DNA of 64,000 nucleotides from positions 1 to 64,000 of the forward strand of contig NZ_NIOF01000010.1 of assembly GCF_002205645.1 (NCBI RefSeq), written 5' to 3'. A model generated the notes under the pieces. The model saw only the letters and a list, made by a program, of their open reading frames with translations. It did not search any database and was not told the origin of the DNA. Origin of the DNA: Roseateles aquatilis (GTDB lineage Bacteria > Pseudomonadota > Gammaproteobacteria > Burkholderiales > Burkholderiaceae_C). Within the stretch, counting starts at the first letter, position 1, and each line of letters opens with the position of its first letter. This document shows positions 4,080 through 37,609 of this stretch, piece after piece. The position numbers and the translations under genes were made by a program.

Positions 4080-5204
4080 TCAGGCGTCAGCCTTCAGCAC
4101 GCCGCGGCGGATCTGATCGAGCTCGATGCTCTCGAACAGCGCCTTGAAGTTGCCCTCGCCGAAGCCTTCGTTGCCCTTGCGCTGGATGATCTCGAAGAAG
4201 ATCGGCCCGATCACTTCCTTGGTGAAGATCTGCAGCAGCAGCTCGTGCGGCGCGCCCTGGTGCGCGGCGCCGTCGATCAGGATGCGCAGCCGGCGCAGCT
4301 CGTCCAGGCTCTCGTTGTGCTCGGGCAGGCGCTTGCTCACCAGGTCGTAATAGGTGTCGATGGTGTCCTGGAAGGACACGCCGGTATCCCGCATGCCTTC
4401 GACGCTCTTGTAGATGTCGTCGGTGCCCAGCGCCACGTGCTGGATGCCCTCGCCGTGGTACAGGTCCAGGTACTCGGCGATCTGGCTCTTGTCGTCGCTG
4501 CTCTCGTTGATCGGGATGCGGATCTTGCCGCAGGGGCTGGTCATGGCCTTGGACTTCAGGCCGGTGAGCTTGCCCTCGATGTCGAAGTAACGGACCTCGC
4601 GGAAGTTGAACAGGCGCTCGTAGAACTCCGCCCATTCCTTCATCCGGCCGCGGAACACGTTGTGGGTCAGGTGATCGATGTAGGTCAGGCCATGGCCGAC
4701 CGGCTTCGACTCGACCGGCTTGCCGTCGGCATCCAGCAGCGGGACGAAGTCCACGTCGTAGATGCTGATGTTGCCGATCTCGCCGGCGGCCGCGCCGTTC
4801 TTGCCTTGCCAGCGGTCGACGAAGTAGATCAGCGAGTCGCCGATGCCCTTGATCGCCGGGATGTTCAGCTCCATCGGACCGGCCTTGTTGTCGAAGCCCC
4901 AGGCGCCCAGCTCCAGCGCGCGCTGATAGGCGAAGGCGGCATCCTTGACCCGGAACGCGATCGCGCAGATCGACGGTCCATGCAGGCGCGCGAAGCGCTG
5001 CGCGAAGGCATCCTGCTCGGCGTTGATGATGAAGTTCACATCGCCCTGGCGATACAGCGTCACGTTCTTGTGGCGATGGCGGGCGACGGCGACGAAGCCC
5101 ATCGAGGTGAACAGCGCGCCCAGCGCGGCAGGATCGGGGGCGGCGAACTCGATGAATTCGAAGCCGTCGGTGCCCATGGGGTTGTCCCAAGGAGTGAATG
5201 CCAT
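4080..5204 (-). CDS. hppD: 4-Hydroxyphenylpyruvate dioxygenase
   Basis: This 374-residue Fe(II) dioxygenase converts 4-hydroxyphenylpyruvate to homogentisate in tyrosine degradation. Two VOC-type halves are visible. The three iron ligands fit His178 (IDHLTHN), His256 (GIQHVAL) and Glu338 (FFEIIQR). The C-terminal gating segment GNFKALFESIE is present. ATG 5204 is preceded by CCGGAGACAAG, a good Shine-Dalgarno. An Lrp-type regulator gene is divergent across 138 bases that carry operator-like repeats. That arrangement, well known for hpd loci, suggests control by an aromatic amino acid. Confidence 0.95.
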   Translation of the reverse strand: MAFTPWDNPMGTDGFEFIEFAAPDPAALGALFTSMGFVAVARHRHKNVTLYRQGDVNFIINAEQDAFAQRFARLHGPSICAIAFRVKDAAFAYQRALELGAWGFDNKAGPMELNIPAIKGIGDSLIYFVDRWQGKNGAAAGEIGNISIYDVDFVPLLDADGKPVESKPVGHGLTYIDHLTHNVFRGRMKEWAEFYERLFNFREVRYFDIEGKLTGLKSKAMTSPCGKIRIPINESSDDKSQIAEYLDLYHGEGIQHVALGTDDIYKSVEGMRDTGVSFQDTIDTYYDLVSKRLPEHNESLDELRRLRILIDGAAHQGAPHELLLQIFTKEVIGPIFFEIIQRKGNEGFGEGNFKALFESIELDQIRRGVLKADA

Positions 5205-29780: not shown

Positions 29781-32700
29781 TCACATGCTGCGCCGGTACT
29801 GCCCACCCACCTCGAACAGCGCCGCCGTGATCTGCCCCAGCGAGCACACGCGCACCGCGTCCATCAGCACCTCGAACACGTTGCCGTTGTCGATGACCGC
29901 CTGCTGCAGCCGCTTGAGCATCGCGGGCGCGTCGCCGACGTGGTCGCCGTGGAAGGCCGTGAGCCGCGACAGCTGGCTCTGCTTCTCGTCCTCGGTCGAG
30001 CGGGCCAGCTCGATGTGCTCCGGCACCGGCTCGCCATGCGGATTGCGGAAGGTGTTGACGCCGATGATGGGGTACTCGCCGGTGTGCTTGAGCATCTCGT
30101 AATGCATCGACTCTTCCTGGATCTTGCTGCGCTGGTAGCCGGTCTCCATCGCGCCCAGCACGCCGCCGCGCTCGGCGATGCGCTCGAACTCGCCCAGCAC
30201 CGCTTCCTCGACCAGCTCGGTCAGCTCGTCGATGATGAACGCGCCCTGGCTCGGGTTCTCGTTCTTGGCCAGGCCCCATTCGCGGTTGATGATCAGCTGG
30301 ATCGCCATCGCGCGGCGCACCGACTCTTCGGTCGGCGTGGTGATCGCCTCGTCGTAGGCGTTGGTGTGCAGCGAGTTGCAGTTGTCGTAGATCGCGATCA
30401 GCGCCTGCAGCGTGGTGCGGATGTCGTTGAACGCGATCTCCTGCGCGTGCAGGCTGCGGCCCGAGGTCTGGATGTGGTACTTCAGCTTCTGGCTGCGCTC
30501 GTTGGCGCCGTACTTGTCGCGCATCGCCACGGCCCAGATGCGGCGCGCCACGCGGCCCAGCACGGTGTACTCCGGGTCCATGCCGTTGCTGAAGAAGAAG
30601 CTCAGGTTGGGCGCGAAGTCGTCGATGTGCATGCCGCGCGCCAGGTAGGCCTCCACGAAGGTGAAGCCGTTGGACAGTGTGAACGCGAGTTGCGAGATGG
30701 GGTTCGCGCCCGCCTCGGCGATGTGATAGCCGCTGATCGACACCGAGTAGAAGTTGCGCACGTTGTGGTGCACGAAGTACTGCGCGATGTCGCCCATCAC
30801 CTTGAGCGAGAACTCGGTCGAGAAGATGCAGGTGTTCTGGCCCTGGTCCTCCTTGAGGATGTCCGCCTGCACCGTGCCGCGCACGTTGGCCAGTACCCAG
30901 GCGCGGATCTTGGCGGCTTCGTCGGCGGTGGGGTCGCGGCCGTTGTCGGACCTGAACTTCGCGAGTTGCTGGTCGATGGCGGTGTTCATGAACATCGCCA
31001 GGAGGGTCGGCGCCGGGCCGTTGATGGTCATCGACACCGACGTCGTCGGGTTGCACAGGTCGAAGCCGTCGTACAGGACCTTCATGTCGTCCAGCGTCGC
31101 GATGCTGACGCCGGAGTTGCCGACCTTGCCGTAGATGTCCGGCCGCGGCGCGGGATCGGCGCCGTACAGCGTGACCGAGTCGAACGCGGTGGACAGCCGC
31201 TTGGCGGGTAGACCCTCGGAAACCAGCTTGAAACGACGGTTGGTGCGGAAGGCATCGCCCTCGCCGGCGAACATGCGCGTCGGGTCCTCGCCCTCGCGCT
31301 TGAACGCGAACACGCCGGCGGTGTACGGGAAGCTGCCCGGCACGTTCTCCAGCATCAGCCACTTCAGCAGCTCGCCCTGGTCCTCATACGACGGCAGCAC
31401 GACCTTCCGGATCTTGGTGCCGGACAGCGAGGTCGAGACCAGCGCGGTGCGGATCTCCTTGTCGCGGATCTTCACGACGTATTCGTCGCCGGCGTAGGCC
31501 TGCCGCATGTCCGGCCATTGGGCCAAGAGGTGGCGCGCGTCGGCGTCCAGCCGGGCCTGGCGCGCGGAGGCCAGCGTCGTCAGCGCGGCGATGTCGGCGT
31601 CGGCCCGCGCGTCGGTCAGCATGGCGGCGCTGGCCTGCAGCTGCTGGATCTCGCGCGCCAGGCGGGCCTGCGCGCGGGCGCGCTTCTTGTAGGCGCGGAC
31701 CGTGTCCGAGATCTCGGCCAGATAACGCGCCCGGGCCGGCGGCACGATCGGTGTCTGATGGGTGCTGAAGCGCGTCGACGTCAGCGGCAGACGACCGTCG
31801 CGCAGCGACAGCCCCAGTCCCGCCAGCCGCGGCTTCAGCGCCTGATAGAGCGCGGTGACGCCGTCGTCGTTGAAGCGGCTGGCCATGGTGCCGAACACCG
31901 GCAGATCCTCGGCCCGCTTGCCCCAGGCTTCCCTGTTGCGCTGCACCTGCTTGGCGACATCGCGCCAGGCGTCGGCCGCGCCCTTGCGGTCGAACTTGTT
32001 GATGGCGACGAACTCGGCGAAGTCCAGCATGTCGATCTTCTCGAGCTGGCTGGCGGCGCCGAACTCCGGCGTCATCACGTACATCGGCACGTCGACGTGC
32101 GGCACGATGGCGGCGTCGCCCTGGCCGATGCCGGAGGTCTCGACGATGATCAGGTCGAAGCCGGCGACCTTGGCCGCGGCGATCACGTCGGGCAGCGCCT
32201 GCGAGATCTCGGAGCCGAAATCGCGCGTGGCCAGCGAGCGCATGTACACGCGTTGGCCGGCGGCCCATGGCGCGATCGCGTTCATGCGGATGCGGTCGCC
32301 GAGCAGCGCGCCGCCACTCTTGCGCCGTGACGGATCGATGGAGATCACGGCGATGCGCGGCGCGTCGTCCTGGTCCAGGCGCAGGCGGCGGATCAACTCG
32401 TCGGTGAGGCTGGACTTACCGGCGCCACCGGTGCCGGTGATGCCCAGCACCGGCACGCGCACCGCCGCCGCGGCGTCGCGCAGCGACTGGGTGAAGGCGG
32501 CATCGGCGCTGCCGTTCTCCAGCGCCGTGATGGCTTGCGCGAGCGCGCGCCAGGCCGGTTCCGAATGGCCGCGCAGCGCGTCGACGGTCTTGGGCGCCGC
32601 GGCGCTCAGGTCCTGGTCGCAGCGCATGACCATCTCGCCGATCATGCCTTGCAGGCCCATGCGCTGGCCGTCCTCGGGACTGAAGATGCGCACGCCCTGG

Positions 32701-33065
32701 TCGGCCAGGTCGCGGATCTCGGCCGGCACGATCACGCCGCCACCGCCGCCGAAGACCTGGATCGCCTCGCCGCCGCGCTGGCGCAGCAGCTCGACCATGT
32801 ACTTGAAGTACTCGACATGCCCGCCCTGGTACGAGCTGACCGCGATGCCCTGCGCGTCTTCCTGCAGCGCGGCGGTGACGACCTCGTCGACCGAGCGGTT
32901 GTGGCCCAGATGGATCACCTCGGCGCCCATGCCCTGCAGGATGCGCCGCATGATGTTGATCGCCGCGTCGTGCCCGTCGAACAGGCTGGCGGCGGTCACG
33001 AAGCGGACCTTGTGGGTGGGGCGGTACTCGGCCAGGGCCTTGTACTCGGCGGACATCTCGGTCAT
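29781..33065 (-). CDS. icmF: Fused isobutyryl-CoA mutase IcmF
   Basis: This 1094-residue B12-dependent enzyme interconverts isobutyryl-CoA and butyryl-CoA, and in some species isovaleryl- and pivalyl-CoA. Domains in order: cobalamin-binding (about 18-155, LFDGHDAAI with the DxH lower ligand motif), a MeaI-type GTPase chaperone (about 200-480, P-loop [12 protein letters not shown] and NKFD), and the substrate-binding TIM barrel (about 560-1094). This order and length match known IcmF proteins. ATG 33065 follows CCGGAGAC; ATG 33056 is possible. The upstream 249 bases contain a long palindrome and a promoter. Confidence 0.93.
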
Positions 33066-33314: not shown

Positions 33315-34304
33315 TCAGGCCGCGCGACGGCGCCGCGCGATCGCGCCCAGCAGGGCCAGCCCGCCGGCCATCAGCGCCCAGGTGCCGGGCTCGGGTACGG
33401 CCGCCATGGAGACGGCGTACTCGATGTTGTCGCTGTTGAGCGCGGTGAACGAGGTGATCCGGTTGCCGGCGGCGTCCACGACGGCCGTGATGCCGTCCCA
33501 GGCGAAGGTGTGGGAGAAGTCGGCGAAGGCATGGCCGCGCATCGCGCCCGCCGCGGTCGCGTCGCTGCTGCGCAGGCCGACCTCGGTGAACACGTCGCCG
33601 GTCCAGAACATGTTGATGGGGCTGCCGAACTGGAAGTCCAGGGTGAGGTCGTAGAAGCCGACACCGTTGCGGCTGCTGTCGACCACGATGCTGTCGTTGA
33701 CCATGGTGCGGCTGTTCCAGGCGGTCAGCGAGGTCCATCCCGGGCCAGGGAAGTCCATCGCGACGCCGTCGGCGCGCATTTGCAGCGTGGTCATCCAGCT
33801 GTACGTGGTGGTGCGGGTGCCGACGGCGTCGTTGAACCCGCCGGCCGCGCCGACGGCGTACTGGTCCTGGCCGTAGGTGCCGTCCACCAGGATGCGGAAG
33901 CTCATCCTGCCGCGCGTGCCGTCGACGCAGGTGCCGCAGCGGATGATGAAGCTGTCGACCAGCGTGGCGCTGGCGGAGGACTGCACGAAGACGTCCGACT
34001 GCGGCGAGCCGGCCTGCTGGTACGCCGTCGCGCGGGACGAGAAGTCCAGTCGCCCATAACCGGCCCAGGCCGCGGCGAAGCCGTCGGTGGTCTGGTGCGA
34101 GCCGGCGCCCCAGTCCTCCAGCGAGGACGTGGAGGACCCGTAGAGCGGCGCGTAGCCGCCTTTCCAGTCCGGCGTGACGTACTCGACCTGTGTGTTGGTG
34201 TTGGCCTGGATGCGGGTGTTGACCGCGAACTCCGCGGCATGGGCGGAGCCAGCGCCCGCCGACAGCAACAGGGCGAGGAGGAGGGGGAAGCGAGGCAGCG
34301 ACAT
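33315..34304 (-). CDS. PEP-CTERM-anchored exported protein
   Basis: This 329-residue protein has a signal peptide (residues 1-23, ending in AHAAEF). A Ser/Thr/Gly-rich beta-type domain follows. The C-terminus has the PEP-CTERM sorting signal VPEPGTWALMAGGLALLGAI followed by RRRR. Such proteins are processed by exosortase and placed on the cell surface or in exopolysaccharide. No exosortase gene is in the window. The single Cys pair RCGTCVDG could form a disulfide. The start follows CAGGGAGACCACC. Its ligand is unknown. Confidence 0.88.
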   Translation of the reverse strand: MSLPRFPLLLALLLSAGAGSAHAAEFAVNTRIQANTNTQVEYVTPDWKGGYAPLYGSSTSSLEDWGAGSHQTTDGFAAAWAGYGRLDFSSRATAYQQAGSPQSDVFVQSSASATLVDSFIIRCGTCVDGTRGRMSFRILVDGTYGQDQYAVGAAGGFNDAVGTRTTTYSWMTTLQMRADGVAMDFPGPGWTSLTAWNSRTMVNDSIVVDSSRNGVGFYDLTLDFQFGSPINMFWTGDVFTEVGLRSSDATAAGAMRGHAFADFSHTFAWDGITAVVDAAGNRITSFTALNSDNIEYAVSMAAVPEPGTWALMAGGLALLGAIARRRRAA

Positions 34305-34452
34305 GGTGGTCTCCCTGGCGGCGTGAGCGCCGCTCGCTGCGCACGTTAAGAGGAAGTGAAATCCATCGCGGCCCCCTCAAACGAGGACCGCGGGCACGGT
34401 GATTGCGCGCGGGCGGGAGCGGGGTTTGCTCCGCCGCGTCGGCGCGGGGCGC

Positions 34453-34466
34453 GGCACGGAACTTGC
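34453..34466 (+). promoter_or_regulatory. Sigma-54-type promoter near nasT
   Basis: GGCACG (34453-34458), four bases and TTGC (34463-34466) match the -24/-12 consensus except for the first T. Transcription would begin near 34478. That is one base before the GTG used here as the nasT start, so either nasT begins at GTG 34539 or another promoter is used. Nitrogen control would be expected for this operon. Confidence 0.5.
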
Positions 34467-34478
34467 GCCTGGCCCCGG

Positions 34479-35108
34479 GTGAATCGCCCGCCCGCTTCCG
34501 TCGCCCGCCCCGAGTCACCCGCCACCGCGGGGCTGCGGGTGCTCGTGATCGACGACGGGGCGCATCGGGTGGATCTGCTGCGCGACGAGCTGGTGCGGCA
34601 GGGCTGCGAAGTCGTCGGCGTGATCGAGCAGGCCACGCTGATCCACGACTGCGTGCTGCGATTGCAGCCGGACGTCGTGATCGTCGACGCCGAGTCGCCG
34701 ACGCGCGACACGCTGGAGAACCTCGCCACGCTGTCCGCCCGGATGCCGCGGCCGGTCGTCATCTTCGCGGAGGACGAGGACCGCGGCCCGATGCGCCGTG
34801 CGATCCAGGCCGGCGTCAGCGCGTATGTCGTGGCGGGCCTGCAGGCGCAGCGGCTGGCGCCGGTGCTGCATGTCGCCATCGCGCGTTTCGAGCAGGACCT
34901 CGCGCTGCGCGAGGAGCTGGGCAAGGCGCAGGCGCAACTTGCCTCGCGCAAGGTCGTCGACCGGGCCAAGGGCATCCTCATGCGCGAGCAGGGCCTGGAC
35001 GAGGACCAGGCCTATCAACGCCTGCGCAAGCTGGCGATGGACCGTGGCGAGCCGCTCGCGCAGATCGCGCAGCGGGTCATCGACGCACAAGACCTGTTGC
35101 GAGGCTGA
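34479..35108 (+). CDS. nasT: ANTAR-domain antiterminator NasT
   Basis: NasT is an RNA-binding antitermination protein of nitrate assimilation. A receiver-like domain (about residues 20-140; VLVIDDG and VIVDAESP) is followed by a helix and an ANTAR domain (about 150-205) with KVVDRAKGILMREQGLDEDQ and AYQRLRKLAM. The receiver lacks the usual Lys near its end, so it is probably not a normal phospho-receiver. The start is unsure: GTG 34479 (209 residues) or GTG 34539 (189); neither has a good Shine-Dalgarno. Its target leader lies immediately downstream. The NasS partner is not visible in the window. Confidence 0.88.
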   Translation: MNRPPASVARPESPATAGLRVLVIDDGAHRVDLLRDELVRQGCEVVGVIEQATLIHDCVLRLQPDVVIVDAESPTRDTLENLATLSARMPRPVVIFAEDEDRGPMRRAIQAGVSAYVVAGLQAQRLAPVLHVAIARFEQDLALREELGKAQAQLASRKVVDRAKGILMREQGLDEDQAYQRLRKLAMDRGEPLAQIAQRVIDAQDLLRG

Positions 35109-35208
35109 ACGCACCGCAACGGCGCATCGACGCCGCGAGGCAGTGCATGAAGGCCGTATGCCGGGCGACGGGCGCCGACGCTTCCCGGGCGCGGGACCAC
35201 GGGCCGCA

Positions 35209-35225
35209 TTGGCACGCTTCCTGCA
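35209..35225 (+). promoter_or_regulatory. Sigma-54-type promoter of the nrtA-cobA operon
   Basis: TTGGCACG (35209-35216), four bases and CTGCA (35221-35225) match the RpoN -24/-12 consensus with one change (C for T in TTGC). Transcription would start near 35236, just before the first ANTAR-type hairpin. NtrC-dependent activation is the expected control for nitrate assimilation; no clear NtrC site was identified. Confidence 0.7.
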
Positions 35226-35238
35226 AAGCTACGTTCAA

Positions 35239-35337
35239 GCCCTCGCAACGGCGCGAGGGTCACCTGGATGGTTGGGACAAAGGCGTCCGATCGGTCTCGC
35301 GCTCAGCGCGGGGCGGTCGAGACGCCTTTTCGTTTTT
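35239..35337 (+). ncRNA. ANTAR-target antitermination leader (two hexaloop hairpins plus terminator)
   Basis: Hairpin 1 is a 7-bp stem (CCCTCGC 35240-35246, GCGAGGG 35253-35259) with loop AACGGC. Hairpin 2 has stem GGAC/GTCC (35275-35278 and 35285-35288) with loop AAAGGC. Both loops are hexanucleotides with A at position 1 and G at position 4, the hallmark recognised by ANTAR proteins. Hairpin 2 shares bases 35279-35287 with the 5' arm of the terminator, so the two folds exclude each other. NasT binding should stabilise hairpin 2 and allow transcription into nrtA. The nasT gene lies directly upstream. Confidence 0.85.
35279..35337 (+). terminator. Attenuator terminator of the nitrate operon
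   Basis: AAAGGCGTC (35279-35287) pairs with GACGCCTTT (35321-35329). The stem continues with CGATCG opposite CGGTCG after a bulged A, and is capped by CGCGC-TCA-GCGCG (35298-35310). The T-rich tail TTTTCGTTTTT (35327-35337) follows. This is one of the strongest intrinsic terminators in the window and lies 17 bases before the nrtA start codon, so it must be conditional. Confidence 0.88.
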
Positions 35338-35353
35338 CTGCTGGGAGTCTTGA

Positions 35354-36604
35354 ATGCAATACGGTTCCACGGAGGGTCTGATGAGCGCGGAGCGTCGCAA
35401 ATTGCTGGCCGCGGGCGCGGCGCTGGGCGGCCTGTCGGCCTTGCCCGGCGGCGGCGCCTTCGCGGCGGGGTCGGACAAGCCGGAGAAGGAGGAGGTCCGC
35501 ATCGGCTTCATCCCGCTGACCGACTGCGCGTCGGTCGTGATGGCCGCGGCGCTGGGCTTCGACAGGAAGCACGGCATCAAGATCGTGCCGACCAAGGAAG
35601 CCTCCTGGGCCGGCGTGCGCGACAAGCTCGTCAACGGCGAGCTCGACATGGCGCACGTGCTGTACGGCCTGATCTACGGCGTGCATCTGGGCGTGGCCGG
35701 TCCGAAGAAGGACATGGCGGTGCTGATGACCCTCAACAACAACGGTCAGGCGATCACGCTGTCGAAGAAGCTGGCCGAGGCGGGCGCCGTGGACGGTGCG
35801 TCGCTGGCGAAGGCGATGCGCAAGGACAGGCGCGAGTACACCTTCGCGCAGACCTTCCCCACCGGCACGCATGCGATGTGGCTCTACTACTGGCTGGCCG
35901 CCGCGGGCGTCGATCCGATGAAGGGGGCCAAGGTCATCACCGTGCCGCCGCCGCAGATGGTGGCCAACATGCGGGTCGGCAACATGGACGGCTTCTGTGT
36001 CGGCGAGCCCTGGAACCACCGCGCCATCATCGACGGCATCGGCATCACCGCCGCCACCACGCAGGACATCTGGAAGGACCATCCGGAGAAGGTGCTCGGC
36101 ACCACCGGCGACTTCGTCAAGAAGTATCCCAACACCGCGCGCGCCGTGATCATGGCGGTGCTGGAGGCGGGCCGCTGGATCGACGCCAGCCTGTCCAACA
36201 AGCAGAAGATGGCCGAGACCATCGCCGACAAGGCCTACGTCAACACCAGCGTCGACGCCATCAACCAGCGCATCCTGGGCCGCTACCAGAACGGCCTGGG
36301 CAAGACCTGGGACGACCCCAACCACATGAAGTTCTTCAACGACGGCCAGGTCAACTTCCCCTGGCTGTCCGACGGCATGTGGTTCCTGACCCAGCACAAG
36401 CGCTGGGGCCTGATCAAGGAGCATCCGGACTACCTGGGCACCGCGCGGCAGATCAACCAGGTCGAGCTCTACAAGCAGGCGGCGGGCGCCCTCGGCGTCG
36501 CCGTGCCCAAGGACGTGATGCGATCGAGCAAGCTCTTCGACGGCGTCGTCTGGGACGGCAAGGACCCCGCCAGGTACGCCGACAGCTTCAAGGTCCGCGC
36601 CTGA
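35354..36604 (+). CDS. nrtA: Nitrate ABC transporter substrate-binding protein NrtA
   Basis: This 416-residue protein is of the CmpA/NrtA family, binding nitrate in the periplasm. The N-terminus has a twin-arginine-like signal (SAERRKLLAAGAALGG) and the mature domain begins around KEEVRIGFIPLTDCA. ATG 35354 (behind GGGAG) and ATG 35381 (behind GGAGGG) both have good Shine-Dalgarno sites; either includes the signal. It is the first gene after the ANTAR-controlled terminator. NasS, the usual partner of NasT, is a relative of this protein without a signal peptide; here only the exported form is seen. Confidence 0.92.
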   Translation: MQYGSTEGLMSAERRKLLAAGAALGGLSALPGGGAFAAGSDKPEKEEVRIGFIPLTDCASVVMAAALGFDRKHGIKIVPTKEASWAGVRDKLVNGELDMAHVLYGLIYGVHLGVAGPKKDMAVLMTLNNNGQAITLSKKLAEAGAVDGASLAKAMRKDRREYTFAQTFPTGTHAMWLYYWLAAAGVDPMKGAKVITVPPPQMVANMRVGNMDGFCVGEPWNHRAIIDGIGITAATTQDIWKDHPEKVLGTTGDFVKKYPNTARAVIMAVLEAGRWIDASLSNKQKMAETIADKAYVNTSVDAINQRILGRYQNGLGKTWDDPNHMKFFNDGQVNFPWLSDGMWFLTQHKRWGLIKEHPDYLGTARQINQVELYKQAAGALGVAVPKDVMRSSKLFDGVVWDGKDPARYADSFKVRA

Positions 36605-36688: not shown

Positions 36689-37609
36689 ATGGTCAGTGCC
36701 GTCTTCCATTCCCCCGGTGACGCCTCCGCGGAGCCGGTGACCGTCTCGGTCGCCACGCCGTTGCCGCTGTCCCGCGACGCGGCCAACGAGCCCGTCAAGC
36801 CCGTGCCCGCGCCGGCCGCCGGGCGGCGCCCCGGCATCGATGGACGCGCCTTCTGGATGCGCGTGCTGCCGCCGCTGGCGGGCCTGGGCCTGCTGTGGCT
36901 GGTGTGGCAGCTCGCCACGTTCAAGGGCGGCGCCTTCCCCACGCCCGCGGCCACCTGGGACGCCGCGGCCAAGCTCTTCGCCGACCCGTTCTATCGCAAC
37001 GGCCCCAATGACCAGGGCATCGGCTGGAACGTGCTGTATTCGCTGCAGCGCGTGGGCGTGGGGTTCGGTCTTGCCGCGGCGGTGGGCATCCCGCTGGGGT
37101 TCATCATCGGCCGCTTCGAATTCGCGAGCCGCATGCTGTCGCCGCTGATCAGCCTGCTCAAGCCGGTGTCGCCGCTGGCGTGGCTGCCGATCGGCCTGCT
37201 GGTCTTCAAGAGCGCCAATCCGGCGGCGATCTGGACGATCTTCATCTGCTCGATCTGGCCGATGGTCGTCAACACCGCGGTCGGCGTGCAGCGCGTGCCG
37301 GGGGACTACCTCAACGTCGCCCGCGTGCTGCGCCTGTCCGAGTGGAAGCTCATGACGCGCATCCTGCTGCCGGCGGTGCTGCCTTACATGCTGACCGGCG
37401 TGCGGCTCTCGGTGGGCACCGCGTGGCTGGTGATCGTCGCGGCGGAGATGCTGACCGGCGGCGTGGGCATCGGCTTCTGGGTCTGGGACGAGTGGAACAA
37501 CCTCAACGTGCAGCACATCATCATCGCGATCTTCGTGATCGGGATCGTGGGCCTGCTGCTGGAGTGGGCGCTGATGGCCCTGGCCCGGCGCTTCTCCTTC
37601 GACGACTGA
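36689..37609 (+). CDS. nrtB: Nitrate ABC transporter permease NrtB
   Basis: This 306-residue inner-membrane permease has about six transmembrane helices between residues 58 and 295. The cytoplasmic coupling segment is visible around YLNVARVLRLSEWKLMTRILLPAVLPYML, the EAA-type loop. The first 50 residues are a Pro/Ala-rich cytosolic extension. ATG 36689 follows GCAGGAG. It works with NrtA and the ATPase encoded next. Confidence 0.92.
   Translation: MVSAVFHSPGDASAEPVTVSVATPLPLSRDAANEPVKPVPAPAAGRRPGIDGRAFWMRVLPPLAGLGLLWLVWQLATFKGGAFPTPAATWDAAAKLFADPFYRNGPNDQGIGWNVLYSLQRVGVGFGLAAAVGIPLGFIIGRFEFASRMLSPLISLLKPVSPLAWLPIGLLVFKSANPAAIWTIFICSIWPMVVNTAVGVQRVPGDYLNVARVLRLSEWKLMTRILLPAVLPYMLTGVRLSVGTAWLVIVAAEMLTGGVGIGFWVWDEWNNLNVQHIIIAIFVIGIVGLLLEWALMALARRFSFDD

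What the first reader, a model, noticed from the sequence alone, without database searches (positions are those of the whole stretch)
35209..35353. Complete ANTAR-type antitermination leader in front of the nitrate operon
A sigma-54-type promoter is followed within a few bases by two hairpins with six-base loops AACGGC and AAAGGC, both with A1 and G4 as ANTAR proteins require. The second loop and its 3' stem (35279-35288) are also the 5' arm of a terminator with a 9-bp outer stem and a TTTTCGTTTTT tail. The two folds exclude each other. The upstream gene encodes an ANTAR protein (NasT). Paired hexaloop RNAs with ANTAR proteins are known from nas/eut systems; this instance is read directly from sequence.
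Basis: partly seen in the sequence, partly recalled or inferred. Interest (0 to 1): 0.7.

Follow-up and report, generated by a model that had tools for sequence, protein, structure and literature searches.

The report
Nitrate-operon RNA switch lacking its sensor
The RNA at the start of this bacterium's nitrate-uptake operon carries a conserved on/off switch of a known kind, but the genome appears to lack the protein that normally tells the switch whether nitrate is present, and related species suggest that the exported nitrate-binding transport protein may do that job.

Summary
A -24/-12 (sigma-54-type) element at 35210-35224 precedes two hairpins with hexaloops AACGGC and AAAGGC (A1, G4); the second loop and its 3' stem form the 5' arm of an intrinsic terminator. 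A covariance model built without the window finds it at 79.2 bits, E 1.5e-16. Hairpin 1 and the terminator covary across 32 leaders. Rfam P11 and narK RNA match below their cut-offs. This is a member of the known ANTAR-target RNA kind, with nasT upstream.

The circuit is the unusual part. No NasS, the usual nitrate sensor of NasT, was found in the genome; its one strong NrtA/NasS-type protein is the Tat-signalled transport protein NrtA behind the leader. Among 128 NasT-linked relatives, all 112 with a cognate NrtB keep the signal; of 16 without NrtB, 12 lack it (not independent). Some of these keep a remnant of the cleavage region. My boldest reading is that NrtA doubles as NasS; constitutive NasT is the main rival. 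A second sigma-54-type element is placed so that nasT mRNA would be leaderless here and in 40 of 156 nasT genes.

The parts
34452..34466 (+). sigma-54-type element CGGCACG-GAAC-TTGC ahead of nasT
   Evidence: such an element in 42 of 62 loci (shuffles 2.2%)
34479..35108 (+). nasT; likely start GTG 12 nt after the element (mRNA would be leaderless); Response_reg + ANTAR
   Evidence: PF03861 74.8 bits, PF00072 34.3 bits; start inferred
35110..35126 (+). weak NtrC-like site (10 of 12 positions of a recalled consensus)
   Evidence: mean best match over 55 leaders 9.3, shuffled 8.0
35210..35224 (+). sigma-54-type promoter of the leader
   Evidence: element in 55 of the 56 leaders found, 21-27 nt before loop 1
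35239..35260 (+). hairpin 1 (P1), hexaloop AACGGC 35247-35252
   Evidence: covariation
35275..35288 (+). hairpin 2 (P2), hexaloop AAAGGC 35279-35284
35279..35337 (+). intrinsic terminator: 35279-35287 with 35321-35329, T tract 35327-35337
   Evidence: covariation
35381..36604 (+). nrtA, nitrate-binding protein with Tat-type signal (ERRKLL; by eye); open frame from 35354
   Evidence: PF13379 338.3 bits; NrtA 2g29, E 4.4e-78
36689..37609 (+). nrtB, permease
   Evidence: TIGR01183
37698..38501 (+). nrtC, ATPase
   Evidence: TIGR01184
38574..41126 (+). nirB
   Evidence: TIGR02374
41143..41523 (+). nirD
   Evidence: TIGR02378
41381..44386 (+). open frame of a nitrate-reductase-like molybdoprotein (true start probably further in)
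   Evidence: best matches Fdh-alpha, NasA, NasC, all below their cut-offs

Best explanation
The leader is a NasT-controlled transcription attenuator. RNA polymerase with sigma-54 starts near 35236, presumably under nitrogen limitation. The nascent RNA forms hairpin 1 and then hairpin 2. If NasT holds both hexaloops, the 5' arm of the terminator stays in hairpin 2 and polymerase reads on into nrtABC-nirBD and the reductase gene; otherwise the more stable terminator forms and transcription ends near 35337. Shown here: the sequence, the mutually exclusive folds, the covariation, the linkage to nasT, and the failure to find NasS. Inferred: NasT binding, the response to nitrate, NtrC activation. 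How NasT learns of nitrate without NasS is the open step; see the novel case for the reading I favour. The confidence given is for the attenuator, not for the sensor.
For: Exclusive folds and chance control. Model without the window, 79.2 bits, E 1.5e-16. Covariation on 32 leaders, 0 of 500 shuffles for percentage paired and covariation score. 56 of 64 items with the whole arrangement, 55 with the promoter at near-constant distance. Response_reg + ANTAR gene directly upstream. In other ANTAR systems a pair of hexaloop hairpins with A1 and G4, the second overlapping the terminator, is the proven target (PMC3369931, passages).
Against: Hairpin 2 is short and hardly varies (3 of 5 pairs never change), so its conservation could be sequence rather than pairing. 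Rfam matches stay below the curated cut-offs. L041 and L046 change loop 2 without compensation in the terminator arm, and the leaders of L060-L063, L065-L068 and L070 have a poor T tract. No experiment on this organism.
Confidence: 0.87

Rival explanations
1. On the sensing step: NasT acts here without nitrate sensing. It is always active, and nitrogen status alone, through sigma-54 promoters at nasT and at the leader, governs the operon; the attenuator then reads the amount of NasT.
For: No NasS found. Loss of NasS in Paracoccus gives nitrate-independent expression and normal growth (PMC3795266 Discussion; PMC5424462 passages). A sigma-54-type element ahead of nasT too.
Against: Does not explain why signal-less relatives of NrtA persist behind or beside nasT without a cognate NrtB.
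Confidence: 0.35
2. On the sensing step: another protein, not recognised by homology to NasS, or a diverged binding protein elsewhere, holds NasT.
For: The NasS search is by homology only; five of 15 nasT-bearing genomes of the genus hold a further weak relative elsewhere.
Against: In the own genome the next PF13379 match is 77.3 bits against 340 and looks like a generic binding protein.
Confidence: 0.22
3. On the ligand: a different ANTAR protein, not the adjacent NasT, binds this leader.
For: A second, weak ANTAR match exists (27.2 bits, 27.6 with its neighbours, C34). Some relatives have an ANTAR-PilJ protein.
Against: Adjacency of nasT; the ANTAR-PilJ protein is not in this genome; the C34 protein lacks the first part of the ANTAR profile (positions 15-54).
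Confidence: 0.05
4. The terminated leader is itself a trans-acting small RNA, as the Rfam label of P11 ('Gene', sRNA) suggests.
For: Match to RF00625 over its full length; a stable terminated product is expected.
Against: It lies ahead of the nitrate operon in the leaders found, and outside the loops and the terminator arm the sequence is largely free to vary. No target was sought.
Confidence: 0.08

Closest known systems
ANTAR-target dual-hexaloop RNA (eut leaders of EutV, nasF leader of NasR, amiE leader of AmiR; PMC3369931)
   Same: Two hairpins with A1/G4 hexaloops, the second overlapping the 5' arm of an intrinsic terminator; ANTAR protein in the genome
   Different: Nothing essential in the RNA; here with a sigma-54-type promoter about one turn ahead of hairpin 1
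Rfam RF00625 (P11) and RF03032 (narK RNA)
   Same: Full-length alignment, hexaloops in register, including the stretch of the promoter element
   Different: Scores 35.7 and 36.1 against cut-offs 70 and 43.2; linker and terminator loop differ
NasS-NasT of Paracoccus denitrificans (PMC3795266, PMC5424462)
   Same: NasT-type Response_reg + ANTAR protein next to the leader of a nitrate assimilation operon with two hairpins
   Different: No NasS found here; the position is taken by an exported NrtA behind the leader
NasR/nasF of Klebsiella
   Same: Antitermination of a nitrate operon by an ANTAR protein
   Different: NasR carries its own NIT nitrate-sensing domain (PMC3369931 passages); NasT here has a receiver domain

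Membership tests
ANTAR-target RNA | Two stem-loops of at least 3 bp with six-base loops, A at 1 and G at 4 | tested here: met
ANTAR-target RNA | Second hairpin overlaps the 5' arm of an intrinsic terminator; folds exclude each other | tested here: met
ANTAR-target RNA | Pairing kept by compensatory change in relatives | tested here: met
   hairpin 1 in 7 of 8 pairs, terminator in 5 of 14; hairpin 2 in 1 of 5 only
ANTAR-target RNA | An ANTAR protein is encoded in the genome | tested here: met
ANTAR-target RNA | Bound by the ANTAR protein | not testable with these tools
   needs gel shift or in vitro transcription
Rfam RF00625 P11 | Score at or above the gathering cut-off | tested here: not met
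   35.7 bits, cut-off 70; not filed as a member
Rfam RF03032 narK RNA | Score at or above the gathering cut-off | tested here: not met
   36.1 bits, cut-off 43.2; not filed as a member
NasS-NasT two-component system | NasT: receiver plus ANTAR domain, beside the nitrate operon | tested here: met
NasS-NasT two-component system | NasS: cytoplasmic NrtA-like sensor without signal | tested here: not met
   the one strong relative is NrtA, with a signal by eye
NasR (NIT-ANTAR) | NIT domain fused to ANTAR | tested here: not met
   Response_reg and ANTAR only
sigma-54 promoter | -24 GG and -12 GC at the right spacing, conserved in relatives | tested here: met
sigma-54 promoter | Transcription depends on RpoN and an activator such as NtrC | not testable with these tools
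   only indirect: Acidovorax citrulli ntrC mutant, nasS down (PMC10052978 passages)

The most novel reading that the evidence does not exclude
In this clade the Tat-exported transport protein NrtA moonlights as the nitrate sensor: folded in the cytoplasm before export, nitrate-free NrtA holds NasT, and since nrtA is the first gene behind the NasT-dependent leader the circuit limits itself. Dedicated cytoplasmic NasS-like proteins of Burkholderiales arose more than once from such NrtA by losing the signal when transport was taken over. In addition, nasT is read from a sigma-54 promoter as a leaderless mRNA.
Probability: 0.33. Interest if true: 0.75.

Novelty: new variant of a known kind. Interest (0 to 1): 0.5.

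Why it matters
The leader is a well-supported new member of the ANTAR-target kind and gives a large comparative set of it in Burkholderiales, and it ties two Rfam families (P11, narK RNA) to this kind. If the circuit reading is right, a transport protein on its way out of the cell serves as the cytoplasmic sensor of an RNA switch; at the least, it makes directly testable how NasT works where NasS is missing.

Tried and rejected
Further NasT targets: a whole-genome search with model R1 found only the window's leader (84.9 bits; the window is one of the sequences in R1); next came 16.8 bits, the reverse strand of the same hairpin, and three of E above 3. The first look scored 150 of 15717 candidates and the model is of nrtA leaders, so other kinds of target could be missed.

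A diverged NasS elsewhere: the second PF13379 match of the own genome (77.3 bits, L004) is a generic-looking binding protein beside a GGDEF/EAL-like gene (by eye). The five lower matches were not examined one by one, nor were the further weak NasS relatives of five genomes of the genus.

A cytoplasmic NrtA from an internal start: I see no Met between the signal and the mature part of the window's NrtA; L150, L151, L171 and L174 do have one. Left open.

NtrC sites: a weak excess only (mean best match 9.3 of 12 against 8.0 shuffled).

L073, meant as a NasS control, looked like an AmiC/AmiR-type locus and was dropped. A first signal scan failed through a faulty motif and was redone. The automatic rule marked L013, L048, L055, L092, L095, L102, L150, L151, L171 and L174 as unsignalled; by eye they carry signals.

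Structure prediction and fold search were not used.

Papers: searches for NasS + NasT + NrtA + signal peptide (one paper, on plant nutrient sensors, listing only), NasT/NasS/ANTAR/Tat signal (the 20 listed show no occurrence of 'Tat signal'), substrate-binding protein/moonlighting/antiterminator (one unrelated paper), P11 + ANTAR + nitrate (none), 'narK RNA' (no occurrence in the 20 listed). These are open-access papers only, so absence from print is not shown.

Full report
OBSERVATION. Between nasT and nrtA lie a -24/-12 element at 35210-35224, hairpin 1 at 35239-35260 (loop AACGGC), hairpin 2 at 35275-35288 (loop AAAGGC) and a terminator whose 5' arm 35279-35287 is loop 2 plus the 3' stem of hairpin 2, with a T tract at 35327-35337. 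Folding 35225-35353 gives -60.7 kcal/mol, z -3.47, 0 of 200 shuffles as stable. On 35236-35345 the free fold (terminator) has -60.1 and the fold with hairpins 1 and 2 enforced -46.8; folding growing transcripts puts hairpin 2 in the best fold at ends 35288-35289, 35296-35312 and 35318-35323, and the terminator from 35327. Termination is thus the default at equilibrium and the antiterminator must be held.

CHANCE AND COVARIANCE. A strict scan for the whole arrangement gave one hit in the window on both strands and a mean of 0.0 in 40 dinucleotide shuffles. Rfam at gathering thresholds finds nothing in the window. With permissive thresholds on 701 bases two of four matches stand out: P11 (RF00625, 35.7 bits, E 4.1e-6, cut-off 70) and narK RNA (RF03032, 36.1 bits, E 4e-5, cut-off 43.2), both over the full model with the hexaloops in register. 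A model from 23 relatives without the window (R2) finds 35235-35337 at 79.2 bits, E 1.5e-16; the next of 12 matches is 15.2 bits, the reverse strand of the same hairpin. E-values of these models are rough.

RELATIVES. NasT found 65 loci in species genomes. Of the window and 63 of them (64 items; L073 and L074 left out), 56 gave both hexaloops with a terminator arm in a scan, and 55 of these a -24/-12 element 21-27 nt before loop 1. Misses: L018, L019, L020, L039, L059, L064, L069, L072; L018-L020, L039 and L064 still show two such loops or close variants by eye. On a MAFFT alignment of 32 leaders hairpin 1 has both-sided changes in 7 of 8 pairs and 92.2% of cells paired; hairpin 2 has 93.8% paired, three of five pairs that never vary and one both-sided change; the terminator 98.0% and both-sided changes in 5 of 14 pairs. 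Percentage paired and covariation score exceed all 500 shuffles; the number of pairs with both-sided change was reached by 2 and 13 of 500 shuffles. The structure was named from the window's fold, which favours it over the slid controls, and relatedness is not corrected. Where loop 2 changes, the 3' arm often follows: AACGGC with GCCGTT in L029, AATGGC with GCCAT in L049, AAGGGC with GCCCTC in L057 and L058; L041 and L046 do not compensate. In 95 further loci, 68 have an R1 match at E 0.01 or better (my count from the table); some of these loci repeat ones in the model (L078 is L011, L079 is L014), and the L154 match is not at the expected place.

GENES. Upstream: Response_reg + ANTAR, nearest in the PDB the 'putative antiterminator' 1s8n (E 4e-23), then a response regulator 6wsh and AmiR 1qo0. 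In the alignment with 1s8n, Ala stands at the conserved Thr and Lys of the receiver, so phosphorylation is doubtful. Downstream: NrtA (PF13379 338 bits; 2g29 E 4.4e-78), NrtB, NrtC, NirB, NirD and a nitrate-reductase-like protein.

NO NASS FOUND. The genome is 100% complete with 0.57% contamination by the tool's estimate. PF03861 gives NasT (78.2 bits) and one weak match of 27.2 bits. PF13379 gives NrtA (340 bits) and six others of at most 77.3 bits. A rhizobial NasS (L077) finds only NrtA here, at 34% identity; of 16 genomes of the genus 15 have a strong ANTAR match, and in 10 of these 15 the NasS query has one match only (my count). The same query finds 15 loci of 40-45% identity in 185 genomes of the class (L199-L213), so NasS-type proteins would be seen. 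In Paracoccus, loss of NasS makes the genes nitrate-independent (PMC3795266, Discussion read; PMC5424462, passages).

NRTA AS CANDIDATE SENSOR. NrtA carries a Tat-type signal (by eye). In some relatives the protein behind the leader lacks it yet keeps a remnant of the cleavage region: L041 MSEASNPLPVAAWAAGSDAPE, L049 ending PATAWVAGSDAPE, L119 ending NAAVHAGGSDAPE; L122 and L158 also lack a signal. In L041, L049, L119 and L122 a second, about 35%-identical NrtA follows; L050 and L128 have that too but keep the signal. Caballeronia (L076) and loci L145-L147 have nasT followed by a signal-less protein of the same clade. Tally over 153 distinct proteins: 7 with under 1.2 kb downstream and 18 without detected NasT upstream were set aside; of the remaining 128, signal and cognate NrtB 112, signal without NrtB 4 (L050, L128, L157, L192), no signal with NrtB 0, no signal without NrtB 12; Fisher p 7.7e-14. 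The 18 set aside were 16 with signal and NrtB, one with signal only (L167), one with neither (L170). These are not independent. On a tree of 61 proteins the signal changes 7 times on the best tree and at least 4 times by well-supported branches, but the independent-pairs test has no power (one informative pair, median p 1). The six loci with a second NrtA form one clade, so that replacement may be one event. A second tree puts the window's NrtA with the signal-less beta proteins in a set of 30 (support 100; three rows of other orders among them), apart from ordinary NrtA (17 rows, support 100) and from the NasS group; long branches and a weak root limit it, and L203 and L208 of the NasS group have Tat-like signals, so the trait may go both ways. 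NasT-linked NrtA with a signal is thus close kin of proteins that can only act in the cytoplasm. That the exported form already serves NasT is inference.

NITROGEN CONTROL. An Acidovorax citrulli ntrC mutant could not use nitrate and had nasS down and nasT up (PMC10052978, passages). If its nasS is the gene behind a leader like this one, that fits a separate NtrC-dependent promoter between the two genes; its locus was not examined.

LEADERLESS NAST. A second -24/-12-type element lies ahead of nasT (34452-34466); such elements occur in 42 of 62 loci against 2.2% of shuffles. Of 156 distinct nasT genes with at least 150 nt upstream, 69 have an element with an in-frame start within 80 nt, and in 40 an ATG (23) or GTG (17) lies 11-14 nt after it, where sigma-54 transcription is expected to begin (recalled); shuffles give 1.0% and 0%. 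The candidate nearest to 12 nt was taken in each gene. Of the 37 with an element among genes at least 60% identical to the window's, 28 fall in that range. In the window the GTG is 12 nt downstream and the next in-frame start lies in the receiver domain. Against it: 87 of the 156 show no such arrangement, and non-AUG starts are reported as inefficient on leaderless mRNAs (PMC3616915, passages).

VERDICT. The finding is real and of a known kind. The circuit around it is a variant with an open sensing step and a clear test.

Noticed in passing
34452-34481 and relatives: A sigma-54-type element ahead of nasT with the start codon 12 nt downstream: the mRNA would be leaderless. 40 of 156 distinct nasT genes have the start 11-14 nt after such an element.
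   Followed up: yes
L079:5149-6474 (-), L078:6053-7855 (-); L129-L132, L142-L144: Some relatives encode a second ANTAR protein with two PilJ-type (PF13675) matches, in L078 and L079 on the other strand after nrtC; in L129-L132 and L142-L144 the best match to NasT is of this type. Not in the window's genome. It may be a fused nitrate sensor.
   Followed up: partly
Rfam RF00625 and RF03032: The P11 'sRNA' and the narK RNA consensus both show two A1/G4 hexaloops by eye and begin at a -24/-12-like stretch: they look like the same ANTAR-leader kind under two names.
   Followed up: partly
L060-L063, L065-L068, L070: Leaders whose terminator arm pairs but whose T tract is poor (2-6 T in 10, against 6-9 in the other 47 leaders).
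   Followed up: no
L076:4829-4931 (+) and 4376-4503 (-): Caballeronia plasmid: two leader matches in opposite directions between nirB and nasT (28.6 and 26.2 bits).
   Followed up: no
L041, L049, L050, L119, L122, L128: First NrtA proteins form one clade and are followed by a second NrtA, yet the linked NasT proteins are of two types (67-69% and 42-46% identical to the window's): possible transfer of the operon under a resident nasT.
   Followed up: no
33315-34304 (-) and L011:4583-5740: A PEP-CTERM protein gene lies upstream of nasT; in L011, L012, L014 and L015 about 1.3 kb separates nasT from nrtA, and in L011 it appears by eye to hold such a gene on the other strand.
   Followed up: no
29781-33065 (-): A fused isobutyryl-CoA mutase gene (IcmF) lies upstream of nasT; the same neighbour shows in many of the related loci.
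   Followed up: no
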